From NCBI GenBank assembly GCA_949317995.1, contig OX439041.1, positions 16,709,501-16,773,500 on the forward strand: DNA of 64,000 bases, read 5' to 3'. The position numbers and the translations under genes were made by a program. The DNA comes from Acholoe squamosa (lineage: Eukaryota > Annelida > Polychaeta > Phyllodocida > Polynoidae). The notes under the pieces are model-generated. The model had not been told where the DNA came from. It searched no databases and was given only the letters and a program-made list of their open reading frames with translations. Shown piece after piece: positions 20,105 through 51,632 of this stretch. The first letter of the stretch is position 1. Every line of letters begins with the position of its first letter.

Positions 20105-20115
20105 TATAGGCCCAG

Positions 20116-20961
20116 CTATGGTGTTATACTGAACACCTTCAACCTAAACTTCCAAGCCTTTTCCAGCATTTCACTCAAATCCTCAACATTGATGAAATCA
20201 TCTCTGTGATTCAAAAGTATTTCCCAAATACCGACACATTTCCTTCCCCTATCCACCACAGTTCCCTCCTCCCAATCATCATCAAACTCAGAAAGTTTCT
20301 CTCTCATATCAAAAGAAGTTGCACTTTTTTTGTTGCCAATACTGTTTTTGAAAACCACTACATCCTCGGGATATGCAGTAGGATTGTTAACCCCAGCAGT
20401 AAATGCTTCGTCCACTGCTTGTTTGACAGTGCAGGCATCTTTCCTCACACCAGAATACTCAGCCCCTAATGAATGTATTTCACCAAAATGGATGTCGCCA
20501 ACATACACATGGGAGCCATACCTTCCAAATAGTGCCTGACAACTAGACTGAATCTGTTCTCTGTCATTTGAATTTGATACCTGTAACTGTAGTGCCTTTA
20601 AATCAACTAAAAGACCTTTTGACAAACGGATGCAACCCTCATCGAACAAACATCGATAACTTGGTACAACAGTGTGAAGACTGCAATGGTAGAAATCAGT
20701 TTCTGATGGTACAACCTCTTCAGATTGATCAAGCGCAGAATATGCTTTGCTTGAATCTATGCTAAGTCTCAAATGGTTTAATGCATGGTTAAATTTATCT
20801 ACCTTCTGCTTACAATAAGTCTTTATGTAAACCGTATTCTTTTCAATCAATGGAGGCAGTGATCTCACATTAGGTTTCACCTCAATTGCAACATCACACA
20901 ACTCAGACCTATCTTTGTATATATCTATCCCTTGGAGAGTGCGTCTCAGCATTTTCTCCAT
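20116..20961 (-). CDS. VLIG-type very large GTPase, segment 1 (N-terminal, MACPF-like region)
   Basis: This 281-residue frame contains GRYGSHVYVGDIHFGEIHSLG near residue 148, matching the FGSH...LHxGG signature seen in the MACPF-like N-terminal region of VLIG proteins, and an IWEILLNHRDDF motif near its end. The frame stays open upstream of the ATG at 20961 to a TGA about 60 bp away. A possible splice acceptor (TTTAG) lies in that stretch, so a further upstream exon is possible. It ends at a TAG, after which reading continues in the -1 frame (segment 2). All four segments together give about 2,100 residues, a little shorter than typical vertebrate members. Confidence 0.75.
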   Translation of the reverse strand: MEKMLRRTLQGIDIYKDRSELCDVAIEVKPNVRSLPPLIEKNTVYIKTYCKQKVDKFNHALNHLRLSIDSSKAYSALDQSEEVVPSETDFYHCSLHTVVPSYRCLFDEGCIRLSKGLLVDLKALQLQVSNSNDREQIQSSCQALFGRYGSHVYVGDIHFGEIHSLGAEYSGVRKDACTVKQAVDEAFTAGVNNPTAYPEDVVVFKNSIGNKKSATSFDMREKLSEFDDDWEEGTVVDRGRKCVGIWEILLNHRDDFINVEDLSEMLEKAWKFRLKVFSITP

Positions 20962-21189
20962 GGTCCCCTCCAGATCCTCACAACCGGTAACTTGGTAGCC
21001 TTCTGCTGTTCCTTCTAAATATCACTTGACAACAGTGAAAGAAGGCCTTGTCGCCTGAACGAAGAATGGAGGATATCACTTCATATCAACGTCTTGCCTT
21101 TATCAACATACTTCACGAATCTGTCCTGAAATGTAGACAATCTTCATGTGAGAGACTTTGCGACTTATAATTTTGGCATAGGGGGTGGA

Positions 21190-25330: not shown

Positions 25331-25977
25331 ACCCTTTTGCATAATTTGACTATTTTTGAAAATTTTTGCAAGTGCCATTCCCACATTCCCACAGTACCCC
25401 GACCACGCACTCTAGATATCTCTACCATGTTGTACATTTTTTCTTCAAAATAATACCCTTTTTGTGCAATTTCACTTTTTGTTACCCAATTATACTTAAA
25501 AAAAAACAACTTTTTTAGGGCATGACTTTTTGTCACTTTTTTTTTCAAAATTTGACCCTTCTCGCCAAACCCCCACCTGGCCACTTTATCCTTTGCTCAT
25601 GATTTCATTTCTCCCAAAGAATTAATTTCTTACATATACTTATGGAATAAAGGATAATAAAGCACTTCTAAATGACCAGAGGGACCATTTTGGTCATCTT
25701 GAGGAGTCACTCTCACAATGGCATGTTAAATATTCAACTTAAAGTCACAATTTAAACAAATGCTTCTGCTTGTTTTGACATACTATATACTGCTACACAT
25801 GCATATACCAATCACCTGCTCAAGCAGTTCTCAAAGTAACACTGTAGATCTATTACATCTATGTATATCTACTTGACATACCAACGGGGGTATTGTCCTT
25901 TGTGTCTCAGCACCGGAGAAAGTGTTAAAGCTCTTTAGAAATTAACCGAAATAATCCGAATCAGTATTGTAGTATAT

Positions 25978-27001
25978 AGTGTATGGAACGGGACTATAGC
26001 TAATCAAAGGAAATTGCTCACCTGGGATGCAGCCAATCAGAGGCCTCCCTTTTGGCGAAAAATTCAAAAAGGGGGGTCATGTGACCTAGACCCCTGTGGT
26101 GTGGTGCCAAAATGGACCAATCAGAACCCTCCCTTTTGGCGGGAAATTCAAAATGGTCACGTAACCCAGATGTGGCGTGCCTCCAAAATGACGCCCTCTG
26201 ATTGGCTGGCTGTTTAGGTCATGTGACCTCTATTATGACCCTAATTTTGGTGGGAAATTTGAAATTTGGTTGACTTTATTTTTAAATTTTCTGCCAAAAT
26301 GGAGACCTCTGATTGGTTGGCTGTCCACACATCATACCATCAGCTGTATACAAGCGGTCACGTGACCTTATTAGCATAAAGAGCATGTGGTTTATTATGT
26401 ACCATAAATCTCTGGTCATAAGCCAGATTTTTTTTCTATTTTTGACCAAAACCGGCTTATAAATTTCTCCCAAAGTCTACCCCCGGCTTATGACCGGGGT
26501 TTTTAAAAGTTTGAATTATTTTTAACCATATTTCAATAGTATACAATAGAAAATAACAGCTTAAAAACCAGAGACCCTCTATTACTTTAATATGTACGAT
26601 TTGTTATCATACAAGTTCATTTCAATGTGTTTTCTATAAGAAATCAATAAAATATTGATTGAAATATGGCTAATTTTCCTTAAAAATTGGTGAGATTTTT
26701 TGGTTTTAGGGGGGGTAAGGCGGGGTCAGGAGGCTCAACTCACCCCCCGCCTTATGACCGGGGTTTTTGCAAAAGACTAAAATGGACCAAAACCAGCTTC
26801 TATATTTCTGCTGGACTCACCCACCCCCGCTTATGACCGGGGCCGGCTTGTGACCGGGGATTTACAGTAGATGAGGGCGTGACTATAGTGAGATATTTTT
26901 TTATAAATAAAAAAAAGGCCAGCTGAAAGCTTGCCAAAAAAATTAAAAAAAAATTTAAAAACATTTGGGGGGCTTTTGGGGGGGGGCCTTTTTTGGGGAG
27001 T
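25978..27001 (+). repeat. Left terminal inverted repeat of element 1
   Basis: Matches the complement of 36889-37601 from AGTGTATGGAACGGGAC inward. Excluding the MITE at 26402-26867 it is about 556 bp. It holds four CCAAT boxes in CCAATCAGA/TGATTGG context (near 26034, 26115, 26199 and 26310). These alternate with GTCAYGTGACC-like palindromes (near 26078, 26156, 26219 and 26358) and CCAAAATGG or CCTCCCTTTTGGC blocks. The modular promoter-like layout suggests transcriptional or replication control at the ends (inference). Confidence 0.85.
26402..26867. mobile_element. MITE inserted in left TIR of element 1 (TA duplication)
   Basis: TA at 26400-26401 and 26868-26869; the ends CCATAAATCTCTGG and CCGGGGATTTACAG are inverted. 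It is absent from the right TIR, where ATGTAGATGAGGG is contiguous, so the empty site is preserved in the same window. CGGCTTATGACCGGGG-like motifs repeat inside. Length 466 bp. Confidence 0.85.
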
Positions 27002-27356
27002 AGTTCACATTCCACTTTTATTTGTCATAATTTCATTTTCAAGCGATTATATTTACACATCATTAAATACAAGTCCACACTCTCTACATATCATAGTTGA
27101 ATATAGGATAGGAATACGATAGAACATACACATGGAGCAGTACACATTTAACTTTTATTTGTCATAATTTTATTTCATATTTTTCATTTTATTCAATTAC
27201 ATTTACAAGTCGGTGAATACCAGCTTACATACAAACTACCTTGGTGTCTTATCTATACATGAATCGTGATACATTGTGGGAGGTCCTTGTCCGGTTCATA
27301 TATGTTGTCCCTGGTGAATCTATGGTGGTGTCTGGTGTATATATGTTGTTCCTCAT

Positions 27357-27740
27357 TTATCTACTGTGTCGTCCGACGCTGGTTGTCCAAAAGGAAAGAC
27401 GTATTTCCCCACTTCTCGGTTCATTCTGAGAAGCTGCAACTCGTTGTCCAGAGAGTTTAATTTCTTTAGGATTTACGTCAGCAAATTTTTGCTCAGTGGA
27501 CTTAGGTTCATACCTTCCGAGGCCAACGGGCAGGTAGGAGAATGTCTGAAATGTTCCACTTTCTAACCATGTGTGTATAGTGACTCCACATTGGTAGCAT
27601 TGAACAACGTCCTTACCTCTGATGTAAAAGAATCCGTGGGTGGCGAGTTTCTCTGAGAAAGGACGGGGTTTATTCCACATAAATGAGTTAAAAGTGTTGA
27701 GTCTCCTCGATAAATCGGCGAAACGTATGTACTTGGTCAT
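27357..27740 (-). pseudogene. BIR-domain (inhibitor-of-apoptosis-like) protein, frameshifted
   Basis: The frame opens with a BIR-type start: R-x2-TF...W then LATHGFFYIRGKDVVQCYQC, with zinc ligands Cys48 and Cys51. After W58 the frame loses BIR character. The matching second half, with the expected His and Cys ligands (EH...H..C), lies in an adjacent frame at about 27530-27556, so a frameshift has broken the zinc fold. BIR proteins bind caspases or related partners and block cell death; viruses and mobile elements sometimes carry them. The protein is transcribed away from the polymerase side. A TATA box lies at 27891-27899. No RING domain is seen. Confidence 0.75.
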
Positions 27741-27890
27741 TCTCCTGTCGCACGTAGGCAGAAAGGTAGGTAGGTGGGTAGGTAGGTAGGTAACGTGGTG
27801 GGGACAGTGACGACGGTGGTAGTAGCTGTGTCGAGTGTGGATGTACCAGTGCCAGGCGAGGTGGTAAATGTGTCACCACAGTCGTGAGTG

Positions 27891-27899
27891 CTTTATATA
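27891..27899 (-). promoter_or_regulatory. TATA box upstream of BIR gene
   Basis: TATATAAAG on the minus strand, about 150 bp before the BIR ATG. The same CCTATATAAAGCAC context recurs 1 kb away before the death-domain gene. Confidence 0.6.
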
Positions 27900-28117
27900 G
27901 GTGTGTTTAATCTGCTTTCCAGCTGCATACTCCCCGTCTCCATCACGACCACCACGTTCCTGTGTAGCAACTTAGGATCCGGATCCCCGTGGTGCACACC
28001 TCCGCCTCCTTCACATAATACACCACTCCCTTCCCACAGGTAGAAACTGTCTGCGGTTACTGTATTAGAAGGGTGTGCTTGATATATGTAAGTACGCCTT
28101 AAATCATGAAAATCGAT

Positions 28118-28864
28118 TTACTTTCCACAATCATCCATCAGCACTCGAATGAGCTGATGTTGTGTACTGCTGGTTTCAGCTTGCCACATTTTCAACACTT
28201 TAAAGGAGTGTAGAGATAGATCTTGTTCCGGTTGTTGAGCGATGGTAGTTAGTTTCTCAGACATCAATCCTAAATACAACTCCATATCTTTCCACTCCCT
28301 GGATAGATATTCAGACATGGTGATAAAGTACCTCTCCATTAAAAACAGGTCGGAGTTGTTGTAATCCAAGTTGTACATCTTGAAAAAGTTCTGCGACTGA
28401 AGCAACCGATCTTGTCGATGAACACTGATGTAGGCATGGTGGTGTTCTCCCCATCTGGCATGAGGCGTAGTTTCAGACCACCAAGTTTTGAACATCTCCA
28501 TACACATCTCCTGCACCGTCTTGATAACGACCAGCTTCTCCAGATGATCATAGGAAATCCCCAAATAGATTCCCAATTTCCTCCAAGATCCAACTAGCTT
28601 TCTTCCTATTTTATGAAGCAAATGGTCACTGTATCAAAAATTCATCTCGCCCATGATACCTTCAGCATGTACACTCACTTCACATACATCAGAGGAAGAC
28701 AGGGAGGAAGGATTTTCAAGACTCATCTCGTCTGCAAAAACTTCAGAAAGCACTCGATGAAGGTCGGTAGGCAGGCAGGTAGGCAGGCAGCCGGTGGGTA
28801 GGTGACATGGCGGCATTGGTGATGGTGGATAAATGGTGGTAGGCGCAGTAGTCATAGTGGTCAA
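28118..28864 (-). pseudogene. Death-domain protein with tandem death-fold repeats, one in-frame stop
   Basis: The frame from an ATG at 28864 to the stop at 28118 (248 codons plus stop) is interrupted only by TGA at 28634-28636. It starts with a Pro/Thr-rich leader. Downstream of the stop are two related units. One is SWRKLGIYLGISYDHLEKL...VQEMCMEMFKTWW; the other is EWKDMELYLGLMSEKLTTI...HSFKVLKMWQ. Both have the W..L...LG....L..I....C/K.ML..W pattern of death domains. Death folds assemble apoptotic and innate immune signalling complexes, so a decoy or adaptor role in the host cell is plausible. It neighbours the BIR gene on the same strand. Confidence 0.65.
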
Positions 28865-28897
28865 CAGTGATATATCCTTTCAAGAGAAATCAGGGTG

Positions 28898-28906
28898 CTT
28901 TATATA
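28898..28906 (-). promoter_or_regulatory. TATA box upstream of death-domain gene
   Basis: TATATAAAG on the minus strand lies 34 bp upstream of the ATG at 28864, in the same CCTATATAAAGCACYC context as the BIR promoter. Confidence 0.6.
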
Positions 28907-28964
28907 GGGTGATTTAATCCTATTTCCAGCTAGATACTCCCCACCGCCTTTACCTTTCTGTGTA

Positions 28965-29744
28965 GCAACTTTTCAGCATGACCCTTTGGATCTGTTGACA
29001 TCAAACAGGAGGAGAGACACTGTGACAAGCCTATTTGGTGGGATTATGGGTGATTGCTTCCATTCTGTGTAGCGACTTATCTTTAGATCTGTTGACATAA
29101 AACAGGTGGAAAGGTATTGTGATAACTGTATTTAGGTGGGATTACAGGGAGTTAAAACCTGTGATAATTATCTTAATGTGCTTAACAGGTGTAAGGCAGG
29201 CTCGCCCGTTAAGTTATTATGAGATTCCTTAATTTCTACTCCTCCCCTTGTTAACAGGGGGTGTGTAAATGGGACCAACTACTCTTTGAAGTTTTCTGAT
29301 CCTATTCAGACGAACTTTCTTCTGGATCCTCCTACGGTTTGGTTCACCTGTGGAGGGCAGGTGAAATCAGATTTATAGATACCCTACCGAGTGAGGATCT
29401 CTGTGATCATAGGATTAGAGCTCTTTTCTAAAAGATATCAAAAGCCGACTTTGATCCTGCTGGAACTCTTTTTTCTCTGGACGGCCTTTCCTTTGATGAT
29501 CTAAGAGTGGAGTGTTTTCTATTTTTTTTTTCATCTGGATTCTCCTATTGTTTATTTCCCCTGTGGAGGACAGGTGAAATAGGATTTATAGGAGTCTCTT
29601 TGACTACAGGATTAGACCTCTTTTCTAAGAGACGTCAAAGCCACCTTTCATCTATTCAAACTGCAATAAGGGGTTTATCTCCAGAGGAGTATACAAGGGA
29701 GGGAGAAAATTTCATTCACTCACACCTTCTCTGCAACCCTCACC
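28965..29744. promoter_or_regulatory. Divergent intergenic region with duplicated block
   Basis: No gene is seen. A block at about 29325-29460 (GGATCCTCCTACGG... CACCTGTGGAGGGCAGGTGA... CTCTTTTCTAAAAGA) is repeated in diverged form at about 29537-29660. It lies between the minus-strand apoptosis genes and the plus-strand genes, so it probably contains the plus-strand promoter. Another repeated phrase, TGTGTAGCRACTT followed by GGATCTGTTGACAT, occurs at about 28968 and 29066. Confidence 0.5.
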
Positions 29745-31031
29745 ATGAGTAGAAGACAGACTAAGCTACAGCTCTTGAGAAAGATGAGAAGGATCAAGAG
29801 TGTATTGTCTTCTCCTGCTGCTGAAGATGCTACGGCAGCTGCTCCTGCTTACGACCCACGTGGTGTAGCGGGTGGTGGTGTTACTGCTCCTGCTACTGTT
29901 GCTGCTGCTGCTACTGCTACTACTGCTGATGACGACGGCGCTACTGTTGACGGAGAGTCTCATACATCTCCTTACTGGTCACCGATGTTTTATGCCCCCG
30001 CTGGTGCTGGTGCTGCTGCTGCTGATGCAGGTGTTACTACTACTGCTGCTGATGCTGATCATCATCATCCTCACACTGGAGAAGACCATGCTGGTGCAAC
30101 TACAGCTGACACAGACACTGACGATTGCAGTGATACGGATTATTTGGAGACCCATAAAGATCAGCAGACCCAGTACGTGGCAGGAATAGAGGGAGAGGAG
30201 GAAGAGACGGAGGGGGAGTTGACTTCTCCAGCAGTTGCTCAAAGATCACCCGATCTACTCACCACTGCTATCCTAAAGGCTCTGAGAACCAACGGCTTCT
30301 GCTATCCACCAGGGGACACCGACGTCGAGCAGAGCCGGAGCAAGTTTTTTCCTAGCTCCCCGACTTAATCCCCCTCCACGAACGACGGCGTCTGGTTATC
30401 CTATTCCAAGAAGTCCCAAGATACCGACGTGTGCGTTGCTCCTGTTGCTGGTTCTGCTGTTGATTCAGCTCACACTGATGGCCCTACTCTTCTTACTTTG
30501 AAACCCTCTACGGGCATCAAGAGGAGTTTTACCAAGAGTGGCAACCAGGCGTCCAAGAAGAGAAAACCGCTAGTGAAATGAGTACCACCACCACCTTCCA
30601 CAGTCCCCAGATTGGAGTTCTTCGTTGACAGTTTGAAGCTGGAGATCTGGCTCGACGGGGTTAGGCTCTCCAAGGAATGCTACAGCACCATAAAGAGCAC
30701 CTCAACGCCCACCAGGGAAGTGACCTTCACCACTGACGCACTCCTCAAGCTAATAGCGAACATCACTGACGTGCAAGAGGAGGTACGGATACGCCACAGA
30801 TCGGTCTCCGAAGGACTTCCAAATCACATCACATGGTTCGTCGTCCTGGATCTGGAAAGCGAGATGTATGTAGCTGTCAGCTACTACAAGGGTAAGAACG
30901 TCATCCACATGCACAGGTACGAAGGACCCCAGAAAACTCGGACACAGGACGGTGTGACGCTTTCGACCAAGGCGCTGAAAGAACTGGGTAACAAAAAAGA
31001 GATTATTCTTGAATTTCTTGACAGAATTTGA
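29745..31031 (+). pseudogene. PC4-like (ssDNA-binding coactivator-type) protein with long disordered N-terminus, two in-frame stops
   Basis: One frame runs 428 codons from ATG 29745 to the stop at 31029-31031. It is interrupted only by TAA (30366-30368) and TGA (30579-30581). The start is Arg/Lys-rich (MSRRQTKLQLLRKMRRIK). Then comes an Ala/Thr/Asp/Gly-rich acidic region, a KKRKP nuclear-signal-like patch, and a globular C-terminus after 30612. The end reads YYKGKNVIHMHRYEGPQ, then KTRTQDGVTLSTKALKEL. This resembles the strand-strand-helix pattern of PC4/p15 ssDNA-binding domains (known of that family: dimeric, binds single-stranded DNA). Beside a DNA polymerase, a single-strand-binding role is attractive but unproven. 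Confidence 0.5.
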
Positions 31032-31130
31032 TTGAGACGTGTGTGAGATAGTGTTGATGTATGTTTTATATGTCGTGTATGTAGGTGTATATACTTTGTG
31101 TAGATATGTTGTGTATATAGGTGTACAGGT

Positions 31131-31138
31131 AGATAGAT

Positions 31139-31173
<35 letters not shown>

Positions 31174-31180
31174 AAGATAA

Positions 31181-31229
<49 letters not shown>
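31131..31229. repeat. (GATA)n microsatellite
   Basis: About 24 GATA units with a few GAAA variants, downstream of the PC4-like gene. Minus-strand YLSI frames are artefacts. Confidence 0.95.
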
Positions 31230-31230
<1 letters not shown>

Positions 31231-31335
31231 GAAAAATATTGAAAAAAAAATTCTCTTTACATATAAGTGAAAATGGATCAACATGAAGGAAGTGTTTCAA
31301 AAAATTTAAAAGGGTGTGCAATTACGACAGACACA

Positions 31336-34100
31336 TGGAAAAATGTAGGGTAATACCTAAATTTTGTCCTCTATGCGGCGAAGGTAATTGCAAAAAATTA
31401 CCTGTCGACGCGAATCTCTGGATGGAGTGACTATTCCTCCGATAATATGCACTATACCGCAGGGTGAGGAAATATTCACCAGGAATTAGCCCGCAATACA
31501 ACCAGGAGTCAGGACACACAAGGCTTGCGTGAGTGTAACAAACTTAAGACTACCAACCGGTGAGTTGAGTGACACTGTAGATACTATGCGTCAGATTCAC
31601 GTCATGCAAAGATTCAGATACAAAGTGGGTTTATCAGTAGGGTTAATTTTACAACACAGAGAAAACAGAAACAAACTACGCTACTTTCACACCTCCCAAA
31701 ACAACGCAACTCTTTTACATCCCCTCCCCACCATAACTAATTCAGAAACTTTGGAAGAGTTCCTCTTCCTCATGAAAACACTATCACTTCCGAAGAAGTA
31801 CAGAAACTTTGCGACTCTGACACCAAGTGGAAAGTTCTTTTTTTCCACCAGTTTGAACGTTTGCATTTACATGTAACCCAGAGCATTCCCCATAGGGGGT
31901 AGGGTTACCCAATTGGGTCGACTTAAAAAGAGAAGAGGTGTGTTAGATTTTCCCAACAGGGACACGTTATGCGTCTTTCGCTGCATATCCTTTCACTTAT
32001 ACAAGACCGGCAAACATGCTTCAAAATTGTTGTGTCAGTTTGATTCCACTGCGAAACCTGAAACCTTCCCAGGCTTGATCATCAGGGACTTACCCACGTT
32101 AGAGAACTTGTTTGATATACAAATAGCGGTTTACACCACCCATAAAGTGAGAGGTCAAAACCTGAAAAACGGAGTTACCTTCTTCAGACCGCCTTCCAAA
32201 ACTTCGGCCACCCGAGGTAAAGTCAACCTACACCTGTCCGCGAAACACGGCTTGCACATATCCCTTGTTACAGATTTCGATGAATACGCTGGCATCTACA
32301 AATGTCCCGAGTGTAAGTCGGCTTTCACGACTAAGTTCTTTTTCGAAGCTCTAGCAGATTTTTCCAATTTTCCTCCCGACGGAAATTCAAAAAAGTACCC
32401 TTACAAAATTACTTTTGATTACGAAGCTTTCTTCAGACCGTCCAAATAACTGTCGACCGAACCCGTGTCAGTCCTGTGGGAACACGCCCCTCTGTCGGCT
32501 AGCGTTTGCATCCGACTTTCCAGGACGCAAAGGTCCAGTCTGCTTCGTGAGACAATCTGACGCAGATTCCGACCCCTTGTTGAATAGGGTTTTGAATTAC
32601 ATATGTTTTCACCCATCCTCTAATACCGTTTTCCAATTTCACGTTTGGTGGTTCTACGCTCACGAGTGCATACTGCTGCGCAGATATCCGTGTGCTTCAG
32701 ACAGGGACGAGAGACATGACAGAACAGCTATAGTAAGCGCTTACTTAAAAGCTCTAGGTCAAAAGTTGATCATCGTATGGGAGTGTGAATGGAGGAAGAT
32801 GAAACGCCAGGATCTGCAGCTTATGGCATCCGAACAACAATGGAAGGTCAACAACTTGAAAGTGCTTCGAAATCCCATGACAGAGAGTGACATCATATCC
32901 TCTGTGAAAGACGGGAAAATGTTCGGTTTGATTCAGGTAGACATCACTACTCCTCCTCACCTACGTGAATACTTCGAAGAAATGACTCCTCTTTTCAAGA
33001 ACGTGACCATTTCAAAATCCGACATAGGAACTCACATGTCAGACTTGAAAACCTATTGAACGCTCCTCAGAGATCCTTGATAGGTAGTTACCACGGAAAA
33101 AAGGTTCTCTTGGGAACACCTCTTCGTAAGTGGTATTTGGATCACGGTTTGATAGTCACCGAAGTGCAGATGTTCATAGAATACTTTCCTAGACAACCCT
33201 TCGCCGGTTTCGCAGATGAAGTAACCACGGCGCGAAGATGTAGTGATGTGTACCCAAACGAGAAAATTCTGTCAGACTGTTACAAGTTAAGGGGAACACC
33301 ACATACGGTAAAACAATTTGCAACAAAGAAATACACTAGAGGTCGAACCTTCGAATTATTAACTAATTCATGGCGGTTCAAAAAGGGTACAGAGTTGACT
33401 ACAGATCTCTTTGAAGTCTAACTGCAACTGAAAACAGTCAGGAACAATCTTCCTATTCAAATATGGTTCATGGTGTACCAGTACGCCAAGTTGAAAATTC
33501 GACTTTTTGGATAAATTTATCGATCGGCGCGATTATGCTCTTTGTCAAATGGACACTGACAGTCTTTACATGGCTCTCAGCGGTGAAACATTGGACCAAC
33601 TCGTGAAACCCAACCTGAGAGAATCGTATTTTAGAGAGAAACGGAACTGGATTCCAACAGCGGTGTGCGATGATCACTTACACCCTTTCGTAAAGATAAA
33701 AACCGAAGGTTTGCAAGAATGGACCCCCCTCACTTCTTGTCAGAGACGATACGTTCACGATCAGAGAACTCCTGGTCTTTTCAAATCCGAGTGGGAGGGT
33801 GATGGGATTCTAAGTCTCAACTCCAAGACTTACATTTGCTACGATAAAGACTCAATAGGTGAAAGAAAATCCAAAAAAAAGGAGTGCAAAGGGGGTCATG
33901 AAAAAACAAAGGTTCAAGAACCCAAAGACTTCTTGGATGTTCTTTTGAAACTAAAAACTATCCATACCATTAATACAAATTTCAAAGTAATAGGAAACAA
34001 AATGCACACTTACACGATAGAGAAAAAGGGACTGAGTTACTTATATGTGAAACGTCGCATACATTCTGACCGAGTGACAACGAGTCCTTTAGAGTTATGA
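31336..34100 (+). pseudogene. Family-B (protein-primed type) DNA polymerase of element 1, fragmented
   Basis: Open pieces: a possible Cys-rich start at 31336 (CPLCGEGNC), 31529-32449 with a TAA at 31874-31876, 32415-33059, 33056-33421 and 33507-34100. The N-terminal region (from 31925) has a D-x2-C-x2-R-C...I...YT pattern like the OTU-like or zinc segment preceding polymerases of Polinton/adintovirus type, then YKCPECKSAF. Exo I is FDYEAFF near 32416. The palm C motif is MDTDSLYMALSG near 33550. TPGLFKSEWEGDG is shared with element 2. Motif B is reduced to KLRGT at 33287-33301. It would copy the element from its ends with a protein primer. At least three shifts and one stop inactivate it. Final residues are SPLEL. 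Confidence 0.8.
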
Positions 34101-34300
34101 AAAGGAAAAAAAAGAAAAAAAAATATGATAAAAAAATTAAATAACTGTAAAGGAAAAAAAAATAAAATTAGATGTAGATAAGCCGGTGAGATAATGTCCT
34201 TTGTTGTTGTGTTAACTTCATCTACTACATCCACTGGCTTACCTCGTTTATCAGTATTGAAAAAAAAACAAGACACCACCACAGATAGAGCTATAAGACC

Positions 34301-34682
34301 CACTTGGCAAAAAAAGTGTTTGTAACGTTTGCAAACGTTTTTATTTGGTTTGGGTAAAAAACGTTTAAAAAAACCCGTTATTTTGACGTTGAAAAAACGT
34401 TTTTAAATGTTTTTTCAATCAATTTTCAACCAAATAGAAACGTTTGCTTTTTCAACCAATTTTCAACCAAATAAAAACGTTTTTTATTTACGTTTCTTTT
34501 ACGTTAAAAAAAACGTTTTTTTAACCTGATATAAAAACGTTTTTATAAAAACGTCAAAATAACGTTTTTTTGAGTACATGTAAAAACGTTATTTTGACGT
34601 TTAAAAAAAAAGCGTTTTGCAAACTTAGGAATCAAAATAAAACGTTTTTTTTGACGTCAAAAAAACGTTTTTCTGCCAAGTG
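34301..34682. mobile_element. MITE inserted in zinc-ribbon gene of element 1 (CACTTGGCA ends)
   Basis: CACTTGGCAAAAAA at the left mirrors TTTTTCTGCCAAGTG at the right. The interior is many AACGTT-centred palindromic phrases (AAAAACGTTTTT). A fragment of the same family ends at 59425 (AAAAACGTTTTTTGCCAAGTG). Coding of the zinc-ribbon gene resumes exactly at its right edge. Confidence 0.7.
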
Positions 34683-34683
34683 G

Positions 34684-35200
34684 GGAGTATATCAATTTCA
34701 TATTGAGAACACATGTGCTTTCATCAAAAGGTGGTATACGTTAGAATCGATCAACACGTTGCTTTCTCTTCTAGAAGAGAACTCAGACTTCTTGAGAAAG
34801 ATGTGTCATTACTCAAAGAAAACATTCGACTCCTTTTGTCAAGAGTGTGTCAACCGAATGTTGTGTAGCAAAGTTCCTTACCCCGGTGTACCAGCTGCTT
34901 AACTGAGAAGTATCATGTCCAGAAAAACTGAATGGAGTACTTGGTATAGTTCTTCAGTGGATTTCACTTGTAATATTGATGAGATGTGGATGGGGATGGG
35001 GGAATACGCCTTACACCTATCCTTTATTTCAAGAGGGTACTTGCTCCAAAGTTGTACACCAAGATTACACCATATACAGTCTGAATTATGACAAACAAAA
35101 GTTGAATGTGTACAGCTCAATGTGTGGGTTCTGTCATGTTCCTCTCCGATATTCAACTATGTTATGTAGAGAGTGTGGACTTGTATTCAGCGACTTGTAA
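34684..35200 (+). pseudogene. Cys-rich zinc-ribbon protein of element 1, 5'-truncated and frameshifted
   Basis: Pieces in different frames align in order with the intact 290-residue protein of element 2 (48515-47643). They are GVYQFH...YTLES...LLEENSDF..MC, then C-x2-C...PGV (34684-34902), then a middle segment, then CGFCHVPL...LCRECGLVF at the C-terminus (to stop 35198-35200). The last part is a CxxC-x11-CxxC zinc ribbon. Its N-terminal half is not found upstream of the MITE. Position just downstream of the polymerase is the same in both elements. No function is known. Confidence 0.65.
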
Positions 35201-35505
35201 ATATTATTGAACGAAATAAAAAAATATGAAATAAAATTATGACAAATAAAAGTTGAATGGGTACTGCTCCATGTGTGGGTTCTATCATATTTCTATCCTA
35301 TATTCATATATGTTATGTAGAAAGTGTGGACTTGTATTTAATGATGTGTAAATATAATTGCTCGAAATGAAAAAAAAATGAAATGAAAATTATGATAAAT
35401 AAAAGTGGAATGGAGTACTACTCCATATGTAGGTTCTATCGTATTACTATCCAATATCTAACTACCTCATGTAAAAAATAAAATGTGAACTTGTATAAGG
35501 TCAGT
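35085..35505 (+). repeat. Triplicated 3' end of the zinc-ribbon gene
   Basis: Three tandem, progressively diverged copies of about 152 bp start at 35085, 35236 and 35389. Each carries ATTATGAYAAAYAAAAGT, GAATG, TACTRCTCCATRTG and TGTGGACTTGTAT or derivatives. Only the first keeps the coding frame. Confidence 0.75.
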
Positions 35506-35679
35506 TCTCATGAAAATGGAGCACATGGCCCAGGAGAAGAAAAGATCTGAAGTACTCAGATGTCTTTTATTTCTTATGTGCTGAAAGGCAGTATGTAAAG
35601 TTAATTACTCACAAAATTAGGAACACTAATTATGAAAATTAACAATTTTATGACAGTTTTAGGAAGAAAACTGTAGGAC

Positions 35680-36396
35680 CTACGTACGGTGATGAATCTT
35701 GTATATGAACATGTTACATGGATTGCTATAAAATAGAATGATATGTAAAAAAACTGATATATTTTGTTCATACAGTCATATAAATATGTTGGCTAGGTGT
35801 CTTTATCATGTATGTCAATGGTAAGAATAGATTATGCTGCAATCAATTATACCTCTTTATGGTGCTGGACCTATGTACGGTGATGTCTATGCATTGCAGT
35901 CATTATCTTAACATATTTATTGATTTCTGGTATTGTAACTTCCTCATAGTACTGTTCTTTAGTCAATTGAAGTATATCAACTGGCTAATAGATAGCATTA
36001 GCTATCTTTATCATTCTATGGCATAGGTTTCAATCATAGACCTATGCATGGTGATGTACCTATGTACGGTGATATTTCCATGATTTCTCCCCATAGATCA
36101 TAATGTATTCATCCAATTATGACAATATTTTGCCTGTATATTCCCTGGACCACATGTATTAACATGTTCTAAAATAATTTACTAATCATTGAGCACTCTT
36201 CTTCAATCAATGATGTAATGTATCTACGTACGGTCATGCTAAGAGGTACACCACATGCTTGTCAGTCCTATAGGTCATTGACATGTGCATGTTGGAAATA
36301 TTCTATATTGACATTACATTACCCTTATTGAGCCATAAAAACTGAGACATCTATATATCTCTAGAGGAGATATATAGATGTCTACGTACGGTGATG
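35680..36396 (+). repeat. Six spaced copies of CTAYGTACGGTGATG
   Basis: The 15-mer or close variants occur at 35680, 35871, 36042, 36060, 36224 and 36382. Spacing is about 160-190 bp, apart from one 18-bp pair. All are on the same strand, between the zinc-ribbon gene and the right TIR. This may be a decayed tandem array of about 175 bp or an iteron-like binding-site cluster. Confidence 0.6.
36345..36383. other. Perfect 17-bp hairpin next to the last 15-mer copy
   Basis: AGACATCTATATATCTC (36345-36361), loop TAGAG, then the exact complement to 36383. It touches the 15-mer at 36382-36396. Confidence 0.75.
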
Positions 36397-36888
36397 CAAA
36401 TGATAAACAACTACATTTTTCCCTATAGATAACAAGAAAATAATAGAAAATGAGCTGTGATGATGTCAAAATTTTCGTTTTTCATTTCTACAATAGTCCA
36501 TATGAAAAGTGTTATCATGCACCTTATTTTACTTCAAATAAATCACATAATGTGTTTTACTTATATTTTTTCCAGTTGAAAACCTTTAAAATATCCACCC
36601 CTTACCCTCTTATCACTACATAGGTAAAAGTGGGTACCCATGGTATGATAATGTTAGCAGCAATGTGAATGTATCAATAGCAAAGCAGTTAGACCTCCTG
36701 TTAAGTGTACATTGGCAGGGGAAGGTATGGTGAGCCCGGGCTCCATTTTCGTGAGAATTGACCATAATTATAATGACGTGTAAATATTATTAATGAAAAT
36801 AAAAAATTAAAAATTTGTTCGTAAAGTTTTATTTCCAGTGGACCCGCCCCTGCCCCAAGGGGTCGGTCTTTGGTTAAAATAATTAATT

Positions 36889-37601
36889 TCCCCCCCAAAA
36901 AAGGGCCCCCTAAAACCCCCCCAATGTTTTTCAAATTTTTTTTTGGCAAGCTTTCAGCTTCCCTTTTTTTTTATTTATAAAGAAATATCTCATTATAGTC
37001 ACACCCTCATCTACATAATTAACTACACCTCTTTATGCTAATAAGATCACGTGACTACTTGCATACAGCTGATGGTATGACGTGTGGACAGCCAACCAAT
37101 CAGAGGTCTCCATTTTGGCAGAAAATTTAAAAATAAAGTCATGTAACCAAATTTCAAATTTCCCACCAAAATGACGACCTCTGATTGGTCCATTCAAATT
37201 AGGGTCATGTGACCTTATTTGCGGCCACGCTTTTAAGGTAAATGACGGGGGACCAGTCCCAAAAGCAGGTCATGAACGGTGCATTCGGTACCATTCATTT
37301 ACCCCCGTCATTTACCAATTAGCTTTTAGCTTATTTGCATAATAGAGGTCACGTGACCTAAACAGCCAGCCAATCAGAGGACGCCATTTTGGCAGCACAC
37401 CACAGGGGTCTGGGTCACGTGACCATTTTGAATTTCCAGCCAAAAGGGAGGGTTCTGATTGGTCCATTTTGGCGCCACACCGCGGGGATCTAGGTCACGT
37501 GACCCCCCATTTGAATTTCCTGCCAAAAGGGAGGTCTCTGATTGGCTGTATCCCGGGTGAGCAATTTCCTTAGATTAGCTATAGTCCCGTTCCAATACAC
37601 T
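36889..37601 (-). repeat. Right terminal inverted repeat of element 1
   Basis: Complement of the left TIR, with the same order of CCAAT boxes and GTCACGTGACC palindromes, ending CCCGTTCCAATACACT. It carries an extra segment around 37220-37330 not present in the left copy, which includes the 80-bp palindromic insert at 37237-37316. Confidence 0.85.
37237..37316. mobile_element. Small palindromic insert in right TIR
   Basis: Perfect 15-bp inverted ends GGTAAATGACGGGGG and CCCCCGTCATTTACC. It is missing from the left TIR. Only 80 bp long and non-coding. Confidence 0.6.
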
Positions 37602-42748: not shown

Positions 42749-43122
42749 GTCAGGCATACAGCTCGGCCATCTAGGAGTCTAGGCTAGAAGTAGGAATGGC
42801 CAGAAGCTTGGAGCTCTCTGGTGAGTAAGTGTAGCGTAAGGGTTGGGTTGATGAAGGTCTCCTGGAACCAAGACTAAAGTCCATAGTGCTACTGCCACCA
42901 CCTGGTAGGAAGGGTATGAACTAGAACAGTTGAGACTAGTGGTTCCAGCTTTTGCTGCTAGGGGAGGCTCTGTGTATGATGATGTCAATAGTGGCACTGG
43001 TAAGCACTAGGGGTCTCTTGTGCTACCTGGTGTCTGTGTGTGAGGCACATAGGCTTAATTAGAGAAGAAGTTAGGAACATTTTAGATCGAGATAGATTAA
43101 AGTATAGTGAAAATAAACTACA

Positions 43123-44235: not shown

Positions 44236-44241
44236 GGCGGC
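44184..44241 (+). promoter_or_regulatory. -1 ribosomal frameshift signal between gag and pol
   Basis: Heptamer G TTA AAC (44184-44190) is exactly in the gag zero frame. After a 7-nt spacer, GGACCC (44198-44203) pairs with GGGTCC (44220-44225). GCCGCC (44208-44213) pairs with GGCGGC (44236-44241). The stems interleave as an H-type pseudoknot. The gag stop (44233-44235) lies in the last loop. A -1 shift enters the protease-RT frame. Pairing was read by eye, not computed. Confidence 0.85.
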
Positions 44242-46332: not shown

Positions 46333-46345
46333 GGGTGGCCATACT

Positions 46346-46490
46346 GACAACTTTAGGTTGTCAGTGACGACCCTAAGTTGTCACCTATGACTACCCCATG
46401 ACGACCTAAAGCTGTAGATTTAGGTATTGTCAACCTGAGGACCTAAAGTCGTCAGTATTGACGAGTTTGGGTTCCCGTAGGTTTTCAGTG
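46346..46490. repeat. Partial foldback copy at the pol breakpoint
   Basis: ACCTAAAGCTGTAGATTTAGGTATTG, then GAGGACCTAAAGTCGTCAGT...GTTTTCAGTG, matches the right arm of 39919-40222 with divergence. It lies directly at the left breakpoint in pol. Confidence 0.65.
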
Positions 46491-47194
46491 TTGTACATAT
46501 ATGTAGGTGGCCTGTTAAATGCTTTAGGATTACCCAGAGGTGAGACAACATCAATACTCTATTCCCATGTGTAAATAATTGGCTAGTAGCCCTCTTAATA
46601 TGCCTTGTCAGCACAATAGATTTATACAGGGTCCCCATCCTATAAGGTAACAGCTTTGCAATGCTTATGGAGACACTGTATCTGCAAAATATGGTAAGGT
46701 TTAGATAGAAGTAAATACTTGATTGACATCTAGTCAATCAATTAAAAATAAAAAATTTATCTGACATATGGACCCTAGATAATTGAGGCATGTAACTGGA
46801 AAGACAGTTCTTCGTTTTTGCCTAAATACAGTCTGGAAGTGCAGCCTAGCTAAGGCTACATTCGTGCATCATGATGACCAAGGGATGTGATCAATCAATG
46901 TACCACTACTAGCCGTTAGAAGAGTAAACCCCCTATTTTCACCTACAGAGCCTTTAGGCTTTATTGATAACTGGGGGGAGCAAAGAGGGACGCCATGGTT
47001 CTAGATACCAGCTTCAGGGCTGGCTGCTAGTAGATGGGAGTTAGAAGGACTAGGACAAAAGATTTCACAAGATTTCTACATGATGTGGTGTAAGACCACC
47101 CCTAGATCCTTTCCATTTCAAACTATACTGTAGGCATGGGGGGTTATTGGATGGGAGTAGTATATGCATGCAAACTGAGCGCAATGCTTCAGCT
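46491..47194. other. Unassigned sequence in element 2
   Basis: No gene, RNA or obvious repeat seen. Confidence 0.4.
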
Positions 47195-47440
47195 ACTAAC
47201 TAGGTCATGACCTACTGGTAGACCGGAAGTGACCTAGTTTCAGCCAATCAGAGGGCTGGATTTGACAGGAAGTGACGTCATAAGGTCATGACCTAGTTTT
47301 TCCGACCAATCAGAGAGCTGGATTCTATTTGACCTAGTGACTTGACCTAGTTGCATAAATTAAGAGAATTGCGCAATATCTAGGGTTGACCTACTTGCAA
47401 ACTGGAAGTGACCTACTAACCTACTTGCAAAATGTATGAC
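47195..47440. promoter_or_regulatory. CCAAT/palindrome-rich terminal region of element 2
   Basis: Contains AGGTCATGACCTA palindromes (47202 and 47285), CCAATCAGAG twice, TGACGTCA, GGAAGTGACCTA repeats and CTAGTTGCATAAATTAAG. Composition and motif mix parallel the element-1 TIRs. It is downstream of the minus-strand zinc-ribbon gene, the position of the right TIR in element 1. Confidence 0.5.
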
Positions 47441-47642
47441 CTACGTATGAAGGTGTATTGCGCAATGCTTGTAAGAAATTACACAATAGCCATGACTCAT
47501 GTTCTGATGCAATATTTCTATGGATTTACGCAATACTTATGACTCTTTTTGATATCAGGCCGGGAGTGCAGTTCTCTCTGTTTATTTTATACATTAAAAT
47601 AAAACACAACTCATTCAATTCACATAACAGATTATATTTTTA

Positions 47643-48515
47643 TTAGACACAATATTTACAGATGAAGACAGATTTTCCATTCATGGGACGTGCACATATA
47701 CAACAGAAACATTTGTTGTGTGTGAATTTACTTGCTTGATACCAGCTTTGACCAGTAAGACTAGTTTTCCATGTGTTGTGGAAACAATAACTGTTAAGTT
47801 TGGCTATGTTAGATATAGCATGCTCAAACAAAGCCTGGGCCAGGAAGTAAGTTTGGCTGTTTTTGGGTCCAGGTAAAAGACCAGATAAAAATCCATCCTT
47901 AAAGTTTACCTCGAAAGAGAAATGATTTCTCACTCCAGGTATACTTAAGGCGTGAAGTTCCAGTGAGACCTGTAGACATGTGAAACAAATAGTTTTAGCA
48001 ATAGCAGATACTTCCAGTTTACAGTTACACTGACAAAACACTCCTACTATGGGATTACATTCTAACTCTTGGAGAGTAACAGCAAACTTTCTTACACTTC
48101 CTAAAGTGTACCTTGTGTAGTGTCTTGGGCAGCCAGGTTCAGTGTGCAATTGATATACTCCTATACACCAATCATGCCATATCAAGTTAACTTTTTTCAC
48201 TCGACAATAGTACATGCAGTTTCTGTAGGCGTCCCAAAAAGCTGAAGAGAAATATTTGTACATTTTAACACTAGTTATACAGTGGTCAACAGTGTCTGGT
48301 TCAGCTCCTCTAAAATAACCGATGTTTTCTGCAGGTATTATTTCCCAAAAGAAATTCTCTGTACATCCACATGCTATAGAACTTATATCATTGTCCGGCA
48401 TTATAGAAGAAGCTTGACTATATGAAGCAACACTTTGTAAAACTGGACGCATGTAATAGTCATAAGGTGGAGTTTCTGTGGTTTGCTCCACAAGCATAGG
48501 TTCTAAACTTTCCAT
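47643..48515 (-). CDS. Cys-rich zinc-ribbon protein of element 2 (290 aa, unknown function)
   Basis: An intact 290-residue frame. Cys and His are frequent (CGCTENFFW, CMYYC, CQCNC, CFTC). The C-terminus is CFCCICARPM...FICKYC, a CxxC/CxxC zinc-ribbon type end. It aligns through GVYQxH, YTL, C-x-C, PGV and the terminal ribbon with the broken gene in element 1 (34684-35200). It lies downstream of the polymerase in the same direction, as in element 1. The intact frame inside otherwise broken surroundings suggests a conserved element function, but none is recognised. Confidence 0.65.
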   Translation of the reverse strand: MESLEPMLVEQTTETPPYDYYMRPVLQSVASYSQASSIMPDNDISSIACGCTENFFWEIIPAENIGYFRGAEPDTVDHCITSVKMYKYFSSAFWDAYRNCMYYCRVKKVNLIWHDWCIGVYQLHTEPGCPRHYTRYTLGSVRKFAVTLQELECNPIVGVFCQCNCKLEVSAIAKTICFTCLQVSLELHALSIPGVRNHFSFEVNFKDGFLSGLLPGPKNSQTYFLAQALFEHAISNIAKLNSYCFHNTWKTSLTGQSWYQASKFTHNKCFCCICARPMNGKSVFICKYCV

Positions 48516-48764
48516 GTTAAATGGTAACTTAAATCTAACCAGATACTGAAAATCTGGTGAATGTGACGCAATGAGTAAAGAAATCTGGTACCACTTTCTT
48601 TAATTCCAAGTTAATTTCTTTAGCGTCGAATTTTTATTTTCTGTGGTGAACATGTATAGTATTCACTTTTGTGAAAAGTTTTTTGGATTTTTTGGGGTGA
48701 TACAGTTCACGTCTTTTACTTTTGTCAGTTTTTTTTCATGATTCAGTACACATTTTTAACTTTT

Positions 48765-49735
48765 TGTTCATTAGAACAAATGTTCATTTGAACAAAAAAC
48801 ATTTTCCAGTTTAACACTGTTTACTATGGGAAAAAATGTTCATTTGAACAATTGTGGGCAGATGAGGGGAAAGGGCCCTCCCTGTGGGATTTTTAGTACT
48901 AGATTTGGCCACTAGGGGAACTACAAAGGCTAATAATGTGAAAAATAGACCAAAAATAGCTTTTATATCCTTTTTTACACAGAAATAGGTGGTTTTCTCA
49001 AAAACGTTCTATTTCCAGGCACTTCCTGTATATTTGGAAAGTAAATGGAAAGTTTTGAATCCAAAACAAGGCCTAAATAAGAGGTTTCAAAATTTTATTC
49101 GAAATAGAAAAAGTAATAATGTCAACTGATGGAATCATTCATAGAGATTCACATGCTGAAAAAAGCATAAAGATACCATTTCTAGATACAAAGTTATGCC
49201 CAAATGTATGGAAAGGGATGGTCATTTTTAATTGATTATTTAAATTATTATGCTAATTAGATGCCTGATTTGATTTAAACAATGAATGATAGAGCTTATT
49301 GGCTGTTTTGATACAGTCATGTCATTACATTTTCGTAAAGCAATATCTCCAAGACTAGAAGGGCTGTGTACAAGTGTAATACCTCATTTTAAAGCTGATA
49401 ACATCAATTTCAAATTTCACATTTAACCTTGGAGGACCCTTTCCCCTTATCTGTCAACAATTGTTCAAAAAAACATTTTCTAGTTTAACACTGTTTTCTA
49501 TGGGGAAAAAATGTTTATTTGAACAAATGTTCACTTGAACAATTGTTCAAAAAAACATTTTCCAGTTTAACACTGTTTTCTATGGGGAAAAATGTTCATT
49601 TGAACAAATGTTCATTTGAACAATTGTTCAAAGAAAACATTTTTCAGTTTAACACTGTTTTCTATGGAGAAAAATGTTCATTTGAACAACTTTTTCTTTC
49701 AACAAAATGTACAACTGGAAGTGAAACTAGAAAAA
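48765..49735. repeat. Palindromic tandem repeat, about 80-bp unit
   Basis: Unit contains AACATTTTCCAGTTTAACACTGTTTTCTATGGGGAAAAATGTTCATTTG, then GAACAATTGTTC. Copies at about 48770, 49470, 49550 and 49630, with the MITE 48856-49456 inserted between the first and second. It lies between polymerase and zinc-ribbon genes. Confidence 0.8.
48856..49456. mobile_element. 601-bp MITE with 8-bp duplication ACAATTGT
   Basis: Ends GGGCAGATGAGGGGAAAGGG and CCCTTTCCCCTTATCTGTCA are inverted. ACAATTGT lies at 48848-48855 and 49457-49464. The empty target phrase GAACAATTGTTC is present in neighbouring repeat units. No transposase. Confidence 0.75.
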
Positions 49736-49747
49736 GAAACCATTTTT

Positions 49748-51632
49748 TTACATAGAAAGGGGTAGGGTGCTTACACCGTCTTCACACACTTGTCTCTTTA
49801 TGTACTGATAGGTTAGACCTTGTTTTCTTTGAGAGTAAGTGGTAACGCTGTGGTTAACTACTCTAAATCCTTTGTTGACTACTGTGACAACATTTTCACT
49901 GTCCAGTACTTCTTTGTACTTGTCAGTGGTTAGGGGGTTTTGTTTTTGAATTACACCTTTGCAACTCATTTTAACGGGCACGTTCACTCCTGTGCCTATG
50001 TAACATTTGGAGTTCAAGGCAGTCATTTCATCACCTTCCCACTCCACTTTGAACAACCCGGGGGTTCTCTTGCCAAACGCCAGACGGCTCTTACAGCATG
50101 GTTGAGGTAACCACAGGTCACCCAACACTTTGGTCTGAACATAGGTCTCTCTGTGGTGACTGTTGTCACATGATTCCGAGGGCAACCATTTGTGACGTTC
50201 TCTGAAGAAAGCTTCACGTTTCTCAGGAATAATGACATCTTCTATGTTCCCTGCACTTAAAGCAAAGTAAAAACTGTCAGTGTCCATTTCACACATTTCC
50301 AAATCTTTCTCATCTATGTATTCAAGGAGAAAGTCGTAATAGAAGGCCAACATTTTAAGTTTGGCGTATTGGTATACCATGAAACCTATTTGAACTTGGA
50401 GGTCGTGGGTGATGGAGGTGGGCAAACAGGACAGTTCTACCGTGTTGTCGCTTATGTCTTGCACGTCTTGCACTGACCAGTGCATGGCCAAACGTCTTGC
50501 CTTAGAGGGGTGAAGATACTTTGTTTGAACAAAGTTTTGTTTTTTGCATATGGTTTTACCCTATGAACCATTTCCCAAAAGTTTGTAGAGATCTGACAGA
50601 ATCTTACAGTCAATGTTTTCGTCACCCTTCCTCCTAGCTTTGGTGACTTCATCCATGAAGGGTAAAAAAGTCTGTTCTGGTGTGTATTCTATCAGAAGGT
50701 GTACTGTCGTAACTACCAAACCTTTCTCCAGGTACCACTTCAAGAGAGGAGTTCCCAACAAAATTCCCTCAGCATGGTAGCTGCCTATCAGTTGGCGTTG
50801 TGGTTGCTTCAGCTTACCTGCTGCTTCCAAGTAACGTTTCATATGTTCACCTACGTCATTTTTTCCAACTAGACAGTTTTTGAATATAGGTGTCATTTCG
50901 CTGAATTTTTCTTTCAAAGATTCAGGTGTTTTTATGTCTACTTGGATAAGTCCAAAAGTTGTTCCTTTTGAAACCCCTCTACGTATTTCATCCTGACTTT
51001 TCCTACCTTGGCACGATGGTCTTTTAATTTCCCATTCACTTTTTGTTTTTTTACACGAGCTTTCAGTTTTTTCTTTGATCCACAAACACTCATACTTTTC
51101 CTCTACTTCGTAACCCAATGATTGAAGATATAGGGTAGTCAAGACCGTATTTTGTTTTTTTTCTTCTAACCATGCCTTTCCGTTGGATATTTTCAAAACG
51201 GATTTAGTGAGGTGACACATGTGGCCATGCCAGTAGCACCCGTGAAACTGGTATACTTTTTTTGAAGCTGGATCATATCCGTCCACTTTTATTATTCTTG
51301 AACCTAATACAACCTCCCCGTAGTTGTATTGGTGTAATATTTTCACATTGTCTGTGACAGCTTTGTAGCGCAACCATTCTGTTGACTGCAGACAGCTTGA
51401 AAATCCTCTTTTCTTTCCTGCGCACTACATAATAACCTGTGCAGTGTTCTTCGCCCATGCACTTGAGGTACAAGCTGTTAGCATCTAACCCTACTATGTG
51501 CCTGCATACTTTGCTTTGTGGCCCGTATTTTTTTTGTCTTATTCTTGTTTCTCCACTTTTGTGATGTCTGTGAAATATAATAGAGGGACCCCCTACTAAG
51601 TTGCGTCTGAGCAAGGAGTGAACATATGTCAA
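49748..51632 (-). pseudogene. Family-B (protein-primed type) DNA polymerase of element 2, 5'-truncated
   Basis: Three open pieces: 51632-51273, 51373-50561 and 50491-49748. Motif A is GLDANSLYLKCM (about 51488). VYQFHGCYWHGHMCHLT is the GCYWHG signature of Polinton/adintovirus-type polymerases. Motif B (KLLGNGS) is interrupted by the frame end near 50565. Motif C is MDTDSFYFALSA (about 50285). The N-terminal OTU-like and exonuclease parts are lost at the integrase junction. It shares GLIQVDIxTP, QRxLIGSYH, LLGTPLxKWYL and TPGLFKxEWEGD with element 1. Confidence 0.85.

What the first reader, a model, noticed from the sequence alone, without database searches (positions are those of the whole stretch)
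25978..37601. TIR-bounded polymerase-B element carrying BIR and death-domain genes
Seen: about 560-bp inverted ends (after removing insertions) enclose a family-B polymerase, a BIR gene, a tandem death-domain gene, a PC4-like gene and a zinc-ribbon gene. Known: Polintons/adintoviruses pair such polymerases with integrase, ATPase and capsid genes; none is recognisable here. Inference: a separate lineage of linear DNA virus-like elements that manipulated host cell death from both the caspase (BIR) and the adaptor (death-fold) side.
Basis: partly seen in the sequence, partly recalled or inferred. Interest (0 to 1): 0.9.

Follow-up and report, generated by a model that had tools for sequence, protein, structure and literature searches.

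The report
Capsid-less Maverick-type element, cell-death cargo
A repeated mobile DNA element in an animal genome has the ends and 6-base insertion scars of Maverick virus-like transposons but no recognisable capsid or integrase gene, and carries a polymerase gene together with two cell-death-type genes, which may offer a new way to explain scattered intronless death-inhibitor genes.

Summary
Window 25968-37601 is one decayed copy of a genome-wide repeat family. Searches with polymerase, BIR, death-domain and PC4 pieces each list about 150 matches, and where the genes co-occur they keep one order: BIR(-), tandem death domain(-), acidic/PC4(+), family-B polymerase(+), Cys-rich 'CxC' gene(+). In 18 of 20 copies read, the right TIR lies within 5 kb of the polymerase piece. 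No integrase, ATPase or capsid gene was recognised in the window copy. But the element is not foreign to Mavericks: 19 of 25 ends begin AGTAGT, the published (AGT)2 Maverick end motif, and both copies tested have exact 6-bp target duplications (GTCGCT, GTACTT); one copy spans 10,957 bp. Best reading: a Maverick-type element that keeps a polymerase, lacks virion and integrase genes, is probably integrated in trans, and carries two likely cell-death modulators. A second, diverged relative lies at 47156-51615. Trans-integration and the function of the BIR and death-domain genes are inferred, not shown; close copies show no codon-level constraint on the death-domain gene.

The parts
25968..26998 (.). 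left terminal inverted repeat with an insertion at about 26384-26866; terminus reads TGTAGTATATAG (family: AGTAGTATA)
27357..27872 (-). BIR gene ORF, BIR domain cut short
   Evidence: PF00653 E 1.1e-9; complete BIR in copy L022, E 5.6e-18
28118..28879 (-). tandem death-domain gene, in two ORF pieces in one frame (28118-28633 and 28634-28879) and cut short at its C-terminal end
   Evidence: PF00531 E 1.4e-6, two stretches; copy L022 E 2.9e-9
29748..30368 (+). acidic low-complexity ORF, probably the N-terminal part of the PC4-like gene
   Evidence: other copies have PC4 matches in open frames up to 483 aa
30582..31031 (+). PC4-like part
   Evidence: PF02229 E 0.0032, under cut-off; 150 matches in the genome
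31490..34100 (+). family-B DNA polymerase in five ORF pieces; D-T-D-S motif in 33495-34100
34684..35200 (+).
   Evidence: region present in 17 of 20 copies
35498..36768 (.). insertion in this copy, absent from copy L029
36891..37601 (.). right terminal inverted repeat, with about 100 bp of insertion near 37225-37330; last ~10 bp diverged
47156..51615 (-). second, diverged relative: AGTAGTATA end at 47156, CxC ORF 47643-48599, polymerase ORFs 49748-50560 and 50561-51424; other side truncated (51615 approximate)

Best explanation
The element is a capsid-less, integrase-less offshoot or variant of the Maverick/Polinton kind. Shown: a repeated family with TIRs, (AGT)2 ends, 6-bp target duplications in both copies tested, and a recurring order BIR, death domain, acidic/PC4, PolB, CxC. 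Inferred: its PolB (perhaps with the PC4-like protein on single strands) copies the linear element from its TIRs; a Maverick-type rve integrase supplied in trans joins it to the chromosome; the BIR and tandem death-domain proteins damp death signalling of the cell in which it replicates, at the caspase and at the adaptor step.
For: Family and order: (151, 155, 150 and 150 matches; 2013, 1342, 2098 and 634 first-look candidates, 150 scored each); of 150 typed polB matches 33 have DD (33 of 34 placements upstream on the opposite strand) and 30 have BIR (29 of 30 likewise) within 15 kb; of 150 PC4 matches 36 have polB (35 of 36 placements downstream, same strand), 38 DD (37 of 39 opposite, upstream) and 41 BIR (40 of 41 opposite, upstream). 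Ends: 19 of 25 exactly AGTAGT, no marked preference outside (at most 0.30 bits). 6-bp duplications: GTCGCT (with L013) and GTACTT (with L029), two of two tested. Published hallmarks (AGT)2 and 6-bp TSD: PMC8097293. Compactness: right TIR within 5 kb of the polB piece in 18 of 20 copies. Capsid-less Polintons have precedent: nine elements without MCP, PRO and ATPase in a set of 72 (PMC4028283).
Against: No integrase source was found: the rve search (PF00665) did not complete, 16 rva_4 matches and the single A32-type ATPase match lie over 20 kb from every listed gene of the family and from the other polymerase ORFs. Among close copies DD shows no third-codon-position excess (2188/1834/2189) and BIR only a deficit at position 2 (2067/1261/1779), whereas polB does show one (4027/2872/5880), so recent constraint on the cell-death genes is not shown. 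PC4 is under Pfam's cut-off. 84 of 150 polB matches have no DD, BIR or PC4 partner in the capped lists and only 7 of 150 have all three; list caps and decay may explain this, but it was not shown.
Confidence: 0.6

Rival explanations
1. It is an internally deleted derivative of an ordinary, complete Maverick: the parent carries integrase and capsid genes plus the same accessory genes, and the deleted form amplified.
For: Maverick ends and 6-bp duplications; most published vertebrate Mavericks have accessory regions beside the core modules. Shorter derivatives exist here (C17 copy of 6,857 bp).
Against: No complete parent was seen. The gene order recurs in many copies and the right side is short in 18 of 20. 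The 71 other polymerase ORFs scored lie over 20 kb from the listed genes of this family. Keeping PolB would be unusual for a plain deletion derivative (inference).
Confidence: 0.25
2. The element integrates by itself: the Vsr-like nuclease stretch inside the polymerase, not an rve integrase, cuts the target.
For: Vsr-like stretch in polymerase ORFs of two families: PHROG endonuclease E 3.3e-5, PDB Vsr E 5.1e-4, TIGR00632 E 6.4e-4 and 0.0018.
Against: All Vsr model scores are far under the curated cut-offs; the matching window piece gave no such hit. A 6-bp duplication with (AGT)2 ends is the signature published for Mavericks, which encode an rve integrase.
Confidence: 0.1
3. Composite: host BIR and death-domain genes merely happened to be caught between unrelated repeats.
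For: The window copy is decayed and holds several insertions.
Against: Recurring order and strand in many copies against 0.46 pairs expected; paired ends with matching 6-bp duplications around the whole unit in C2.
Confidence: 0.03

Closest known systems
Maverick/Polinton elements
   Same: TIRs of several hundred bp, (AGT)2 end motif, 6-bp target duplication, a polymerase whose relatives match DNA_pol_B_2, accessory genes (published features: PMC8097293).
   Different: No integrase, ATPase, protease or capsid gene recognised; the measured copy is 10,957 bp against 12,723-24,620 bp for intact vertebrate Mavericks; gene blocks point outward, whereas the two modules of most vertebrate Mavericks point to the centre (which names the cane toad as an exception).
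Polintons without MCP, protease and ATPase (nine of a set of 72)
   Same: Loss or lack of the virion gene set (PMC4028283, section 4).
   Different: The section read does not say whether those keep their integrase, and mentions no BIR or death-domain genes.
Adintoviruses
   Same: Animal-associated PolB elements of similar kind (recalled).
   Different: Integrase and adenovirus-like virion genes that define them (recalled) were not recognised here.
Intronless single-BIR IAP genes of bivalves
   Same: Single-exon BIR genes scattered over chromosomes (PMC7831173, passages; PMC8917759, passages).
   Different: There ascribed to retroposition; here the BIR gene travels on a TIR-bounded DNA element. 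No homology between the two sets was tested.

Membership tests
Maverick/Polinton | long terminal inverted repeats | tested here: met
   right TIR within 5 kb in 18 of 20 copies, terminus placed in 17 of 20
Maverick/Polinton | (AGT)2 end motif | tested here: met
   19 of 25 ends exact; motif as published in PMC8097293
Maverick/Polinton | 6-bp target site duplication | tested here: met
   two of two copies tested; not visible in the window copy
Maverick/Polinton | family-B DNA polymerase | tested here: met
   relatives: 7 of 24 match PF03175, names; window pieces alone do not match
Maverick/Polinton | protein priming of the polymerase | not testable with these tools
   -
Maverick/Polinton | rve integrase in the element | tested here: not met
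   no Pfam integrase hit in 25 of 26 ORFs of the window copy; that copy is decayed, and about 3 kb of the C2 copy was not read
Maverick/Polinton | packaging ATPase | tested here: inconclusive
   no hit in the same ORFs; one PF04665 match in the genome, over 20 kb from listed copies; model may miss Maverick ATPases
Maverick/Polinton | major and minor capsid proteins, protease | tested here: inconclusive
   no Pfam hit in the same ORFs; no dedicated Polinton capsid model was used
Adintovirus | integrase plus adenovirus-like virion genes (definition recalled) | tested here: not met
   integrase not found, as above; virion genes inconclusive; five IMG/VR scans found no relative

The most novel reading that the evidence does not exclude
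A satellite of Mavericks in animals: it brings its own replicase and two death-damping genes but borrows integrase (and perhaps capsids) from co-resident Mavericks; elements of this kind, rather than retroposition, seeded part of the intronless single-BIR gene expansions of molluscs and other marine animals.
Probability: 0.3. Interest if true: 0.85.

Novelty: new variant of a known kind. Interest (0 to 1): 0.62.

Why it matters
It points to an abundant animal element with Maverick ends and target duplications but without recognised capsid or integrase genes, which makes trans-mobilisation of virus-like elements a testable question. It also offers a DNA-based vehicle for intronless BIR genes, whose spread in bivalves has been put down to retroposition (PMC7831173, PMC8917759; passages only), and it ties a tandem death-domain gene to a mobile element.

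Tried and rejected
IMG/VR scans with a polB piece, two polB alignments, the DD alignment and the CxC alignment found no relative; that collection may hold few integrated animal elements, so this says little. AlphaFold of the CxC protein was weak (mean pLDDT 55.8), and its fold search gave no match at E <= 0.001; AlphaFold of the DD protein was too poor to use (41.3). The polB alignment has no PDB match at E <= 0.1; the DD alignment has only weak ones, best FADD at E 0.043. The rva_4 integrase search gave 16 matches, none within 20 kb of listed family genes. A polB tree of 24 rows puts the window polymerase beside the six-row group that holds the second window element, support 91/91, unstarred and on a long branch. 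A first script on the ends stopped with an error and was rerun in mended form. I dropped the idea of separate PC4 and zinc-ribbon genes, and that of an unrelated new class of element once the end motif and duplications were found.

In print: searches listed no paper that I recognised as describing a PolB element with BIR plus death-domain genes. I saw listings, and passages of six papers (PMC11071296, PMC7831173, PMC12721341, PMC8097293, PMC4028283, PMC8917759), with one section each of PMC8097293 and PMC4028283; subscription journals are mostly not held.
Full report
What was checked. The inverted ends are real: arms 25984-26383 and 37029-37594 at 86-96%, further arms inside, and a subterminal pair. 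By comparison with other copies the left end lies at about 25968, and the right end has lost or changed its last ~10 bp.

Genes. Between the ends lie a BIR ORF (27357-27872, minus; PF00653 E 1.1e-9), a tandem death-domain gene (28118-28879, minus, two pieces; PF00531 E 1.4e-6), an acidic ORF and a PC4-like ORF (29748-31031, plus; PC4 E 0.0032, under cut-off), five polymerase pieces (31490-34100, plus) and CxC pieces (34684-35200, plus). The BIR, DD, polymerase and CxC genes are broken in this copy. Longer ORFs in copy L022 give BIR E 5.6e-18 and Death E 2.9e-9; that BIR aligns with NAIP (BIRC1), cIAP and XIAP chains. PC4 matches elsewhere lie in open frames up to 483 aa, so I read the acidic and PC4 ORFs as one gene (inference). 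The 'zinc ribbon' is the C-terminal Cys part of the CxC gene: the relative at 47643-48599 has 18 homologues at E <= 0.001, aligned, with no Pfam, PHROG or viral-fold match.

Polymerase. Window pieces do not reach a polymerase model alone, nor do pieces of other copies, but a 270-aa ORF of the second window element has 420 relatives at E <= 0.001, two of those listed named DNA-directed DNA polymerase (Littorina, Holothuria), and 7 of 24 aligned members match PF03175, best E 1e-5. The motifs D-T-D-S and K-L-x-G-N-S-x-Y-G are visible in the alignment (their meaning is recalled). Upstream of the second motif, ORFs of two families hold a Vsr-like nuclease stretch: PHROG endonuclease E 3.3e-5, Vsr in the PDB E 5.1e-4, TIGR00632 E 6.4e-4 in L002 and 0.0018 in the second element, both far under its cut-off. 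The corresponding window piece gave no such hit.

A genome-wide family with a recurring order. Whole-genome protein searches gave 151 matches for polB (2013 first-look candidates), 155 for BIR (1342), 150 for DD (2098) and 150 for PC4 (634); only 150 candidates are scored each time, so these are lower bounds. Of 150 polB matches, 33 have DD, 30 BIR and 16 both within 15 kb; 33 of 34 DD placements and 29 of 30 BIR placements are upstream on the opposite strand; 0.46 polB-DD pairs are expected by chance. Of 150 PC4 matches, 36 have polB (35 of 36 placements downstream, same strand), 38 DD and 41 BIR, 82 any of the three and 7 all three. Seen from polB, 66 of 150 have at least one partner and 7 of 150 all three. 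The rest have no partner in these capped lists.

Size and what is missing. I read 10 kb from the polB piece onward for 20 of the 150 listed copies, mostly the best-scoring. The CxC region is in 17 of 20, the right TIR within 5 kb in 18 of 20, and the terminus was placed in 17 of 20, 11 of them at 1.8-2.5 kb. In seven of nine non-window BIR loci (L010-L016 of L010-L018) a left end lies within the fetched flank of about 1.5 kb. For the C2 copy both ends are fixed: C2:91902942-91913898, 10,957 bp, with polB, PC4, DD and BIR matches inside; about 3 kb in its middle and its last 0.5 kb were not read. No integrase, ATPase or capsid hit came from 25 of 26 ORFs of at least 80 aa in the window element. 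No other copy was read from end to end, so absence in the family rests on the window copy and on spacing.

Ends and target duplications. Of 25 ends (23 other loci and the two window ends; repeat loci of one place and one partial end were dropped first), 19 begin exactly AGTAGT and 20 match AGTAGTATA with at most one mismatch; outside positions carry at most 0.30 bits. In print, vertebrate Mavericks most often end in (AGT)2//(ACT)2, and those called intact have 6-bp target duplications (PMC8097293; passages and section 7). I tested two copies. C17: left flank GTCGCT (L013); a right end followed by GTCGCT lies at C17:47128822-47128836, where the polB match predicted it, one of 40 places for the pattern in the genome, the reversed control giving 30; that copy spans 6,857 bp. 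C2: right flank GTACTT (L029); a left end preceded by GTACTT lies at C2:91913890-91913904, one of 7 places, control 18. Genome-wide counts are no higher than the controls allow; the evidence is the position, within about a kilobase of the expected place in both cases. So the unit was inserted as one piece, in the Maverick manner.

Age and selection. Copies differ by 8-11% in coding and non-coding parts alike (PC4 had only two rows and is left out; the copies are mostly those closest to the window, and two places, L016/L021 and L017/L025, may be counted twice). Third codon positions are enriched for changes in polB (4027/2872/5880) but not in DD (2188/1834/2189); BIR shows a deficit at position 2 only (2067/1261/1779). 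Recent constraint on the cell-death genes is therefore not shown. Longer conservation is suggested: three tandem-DD proteins from unnamed sources share 51-66% identity over 71-79% of the query.

Second relative. At 47156-51615 (minus) lies a diverged, truncated relative inside an LTR retroelement region, with the same AGTAGTATA end, a CxC ORF and polymerase ORFs. A CxC homologue (P0008) and a polymerase homologue (P0027) both list 21,164 bases as longest contig, so the two are probably linked elsewhere too (the contig was not seen).

Helpers. PF03175 finds 71 scored polymerase ORFs of other families, 59 with open frames of 1400 aa or more and recurring lengths (13 of 1426, 15 of 1430, 9 of 1440), none within 20 kb of the typed genes of this family. 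One A32-type ATPase match and 16 rva_4 matches lie over 20 kb from all of these. The rve search did not complete. Whether the genome holds a working Maverick integrase is open.

Reading. The element works like a Maverick at its ends and probably in replication, yet no integrase was found in it, so I do not file it as a member but as an integrase-less, capsid-less variant of the Maverick kind. Polintons without MCP, protease and ATPase are on record (nine, in a set of 72; PMC4028283, section 4). The cell-death role rests on domain identity alone. In hard clam, 42 of 49 IAPs of one clade are intronless with one BIR exon and were read as a retroposition burst, with DNA transposons enriched around IAP genes (PMC7831173, passages); intronless eastern-oyster IAPs lack retroposition machinery (PMC8917759, passages). 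An element such as this one is an untested alternative vehicle.

Noticed in passing
genome-wide; ORF groups of 1426, 1430 and 1440 aa: 71 scored DNA_pol_B_2 ORFs of other families, 59 open over 1400 aa or more with recurring lengths, suggest much younger polymerase-B families in this genome; their gene content is unknown.
   Followed up: partly
window 50561-51424 (minus); L002:2534-3037 (minus): A Vsr-like endonuclease stretch is embedded in polymerase ORFs of two diverged families, under curated cut-offs.
   Followed up: partly
window 47643-48599 (minus); P0004-P0021: The CxC protein is an orphan family with conserved Cys positions found beside these polymerases; no Pfam, PHROG or fold match.
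   Followed up: partly
window 43117-55104: LTR retroelement region with gag-like, protease, RT and integrase C-terminal parts and downstream ORFs in env position, interrupted by the second polymerase element.
   Followed up: no
window 14602-21021 (minus): Large GTPase-type gene in several ORFs; URGCP_GTPase PF25683 E 1.5e-114 in 15873-18848.
   Followed up: no
L027:3-1279 (minus): A CxC-type ORF like that of the second family lies next to BIR and DD ORFs, so gene combinations may vary between families.
   Followed up: no
C7:23954737-23955234 of the genome: The only A32-type ATPase match found (PF04665 E 1.1e-8, open frame 218 aa), with none of the polymerase ORFs within 50 kb.
   Followed up: partly
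window 27016-27184 and 35084-35473: A piece of the CxC gene's 3' end is repeated in tandem on the right and present inverted next to the BIR gene on the left.
   Followed up: no
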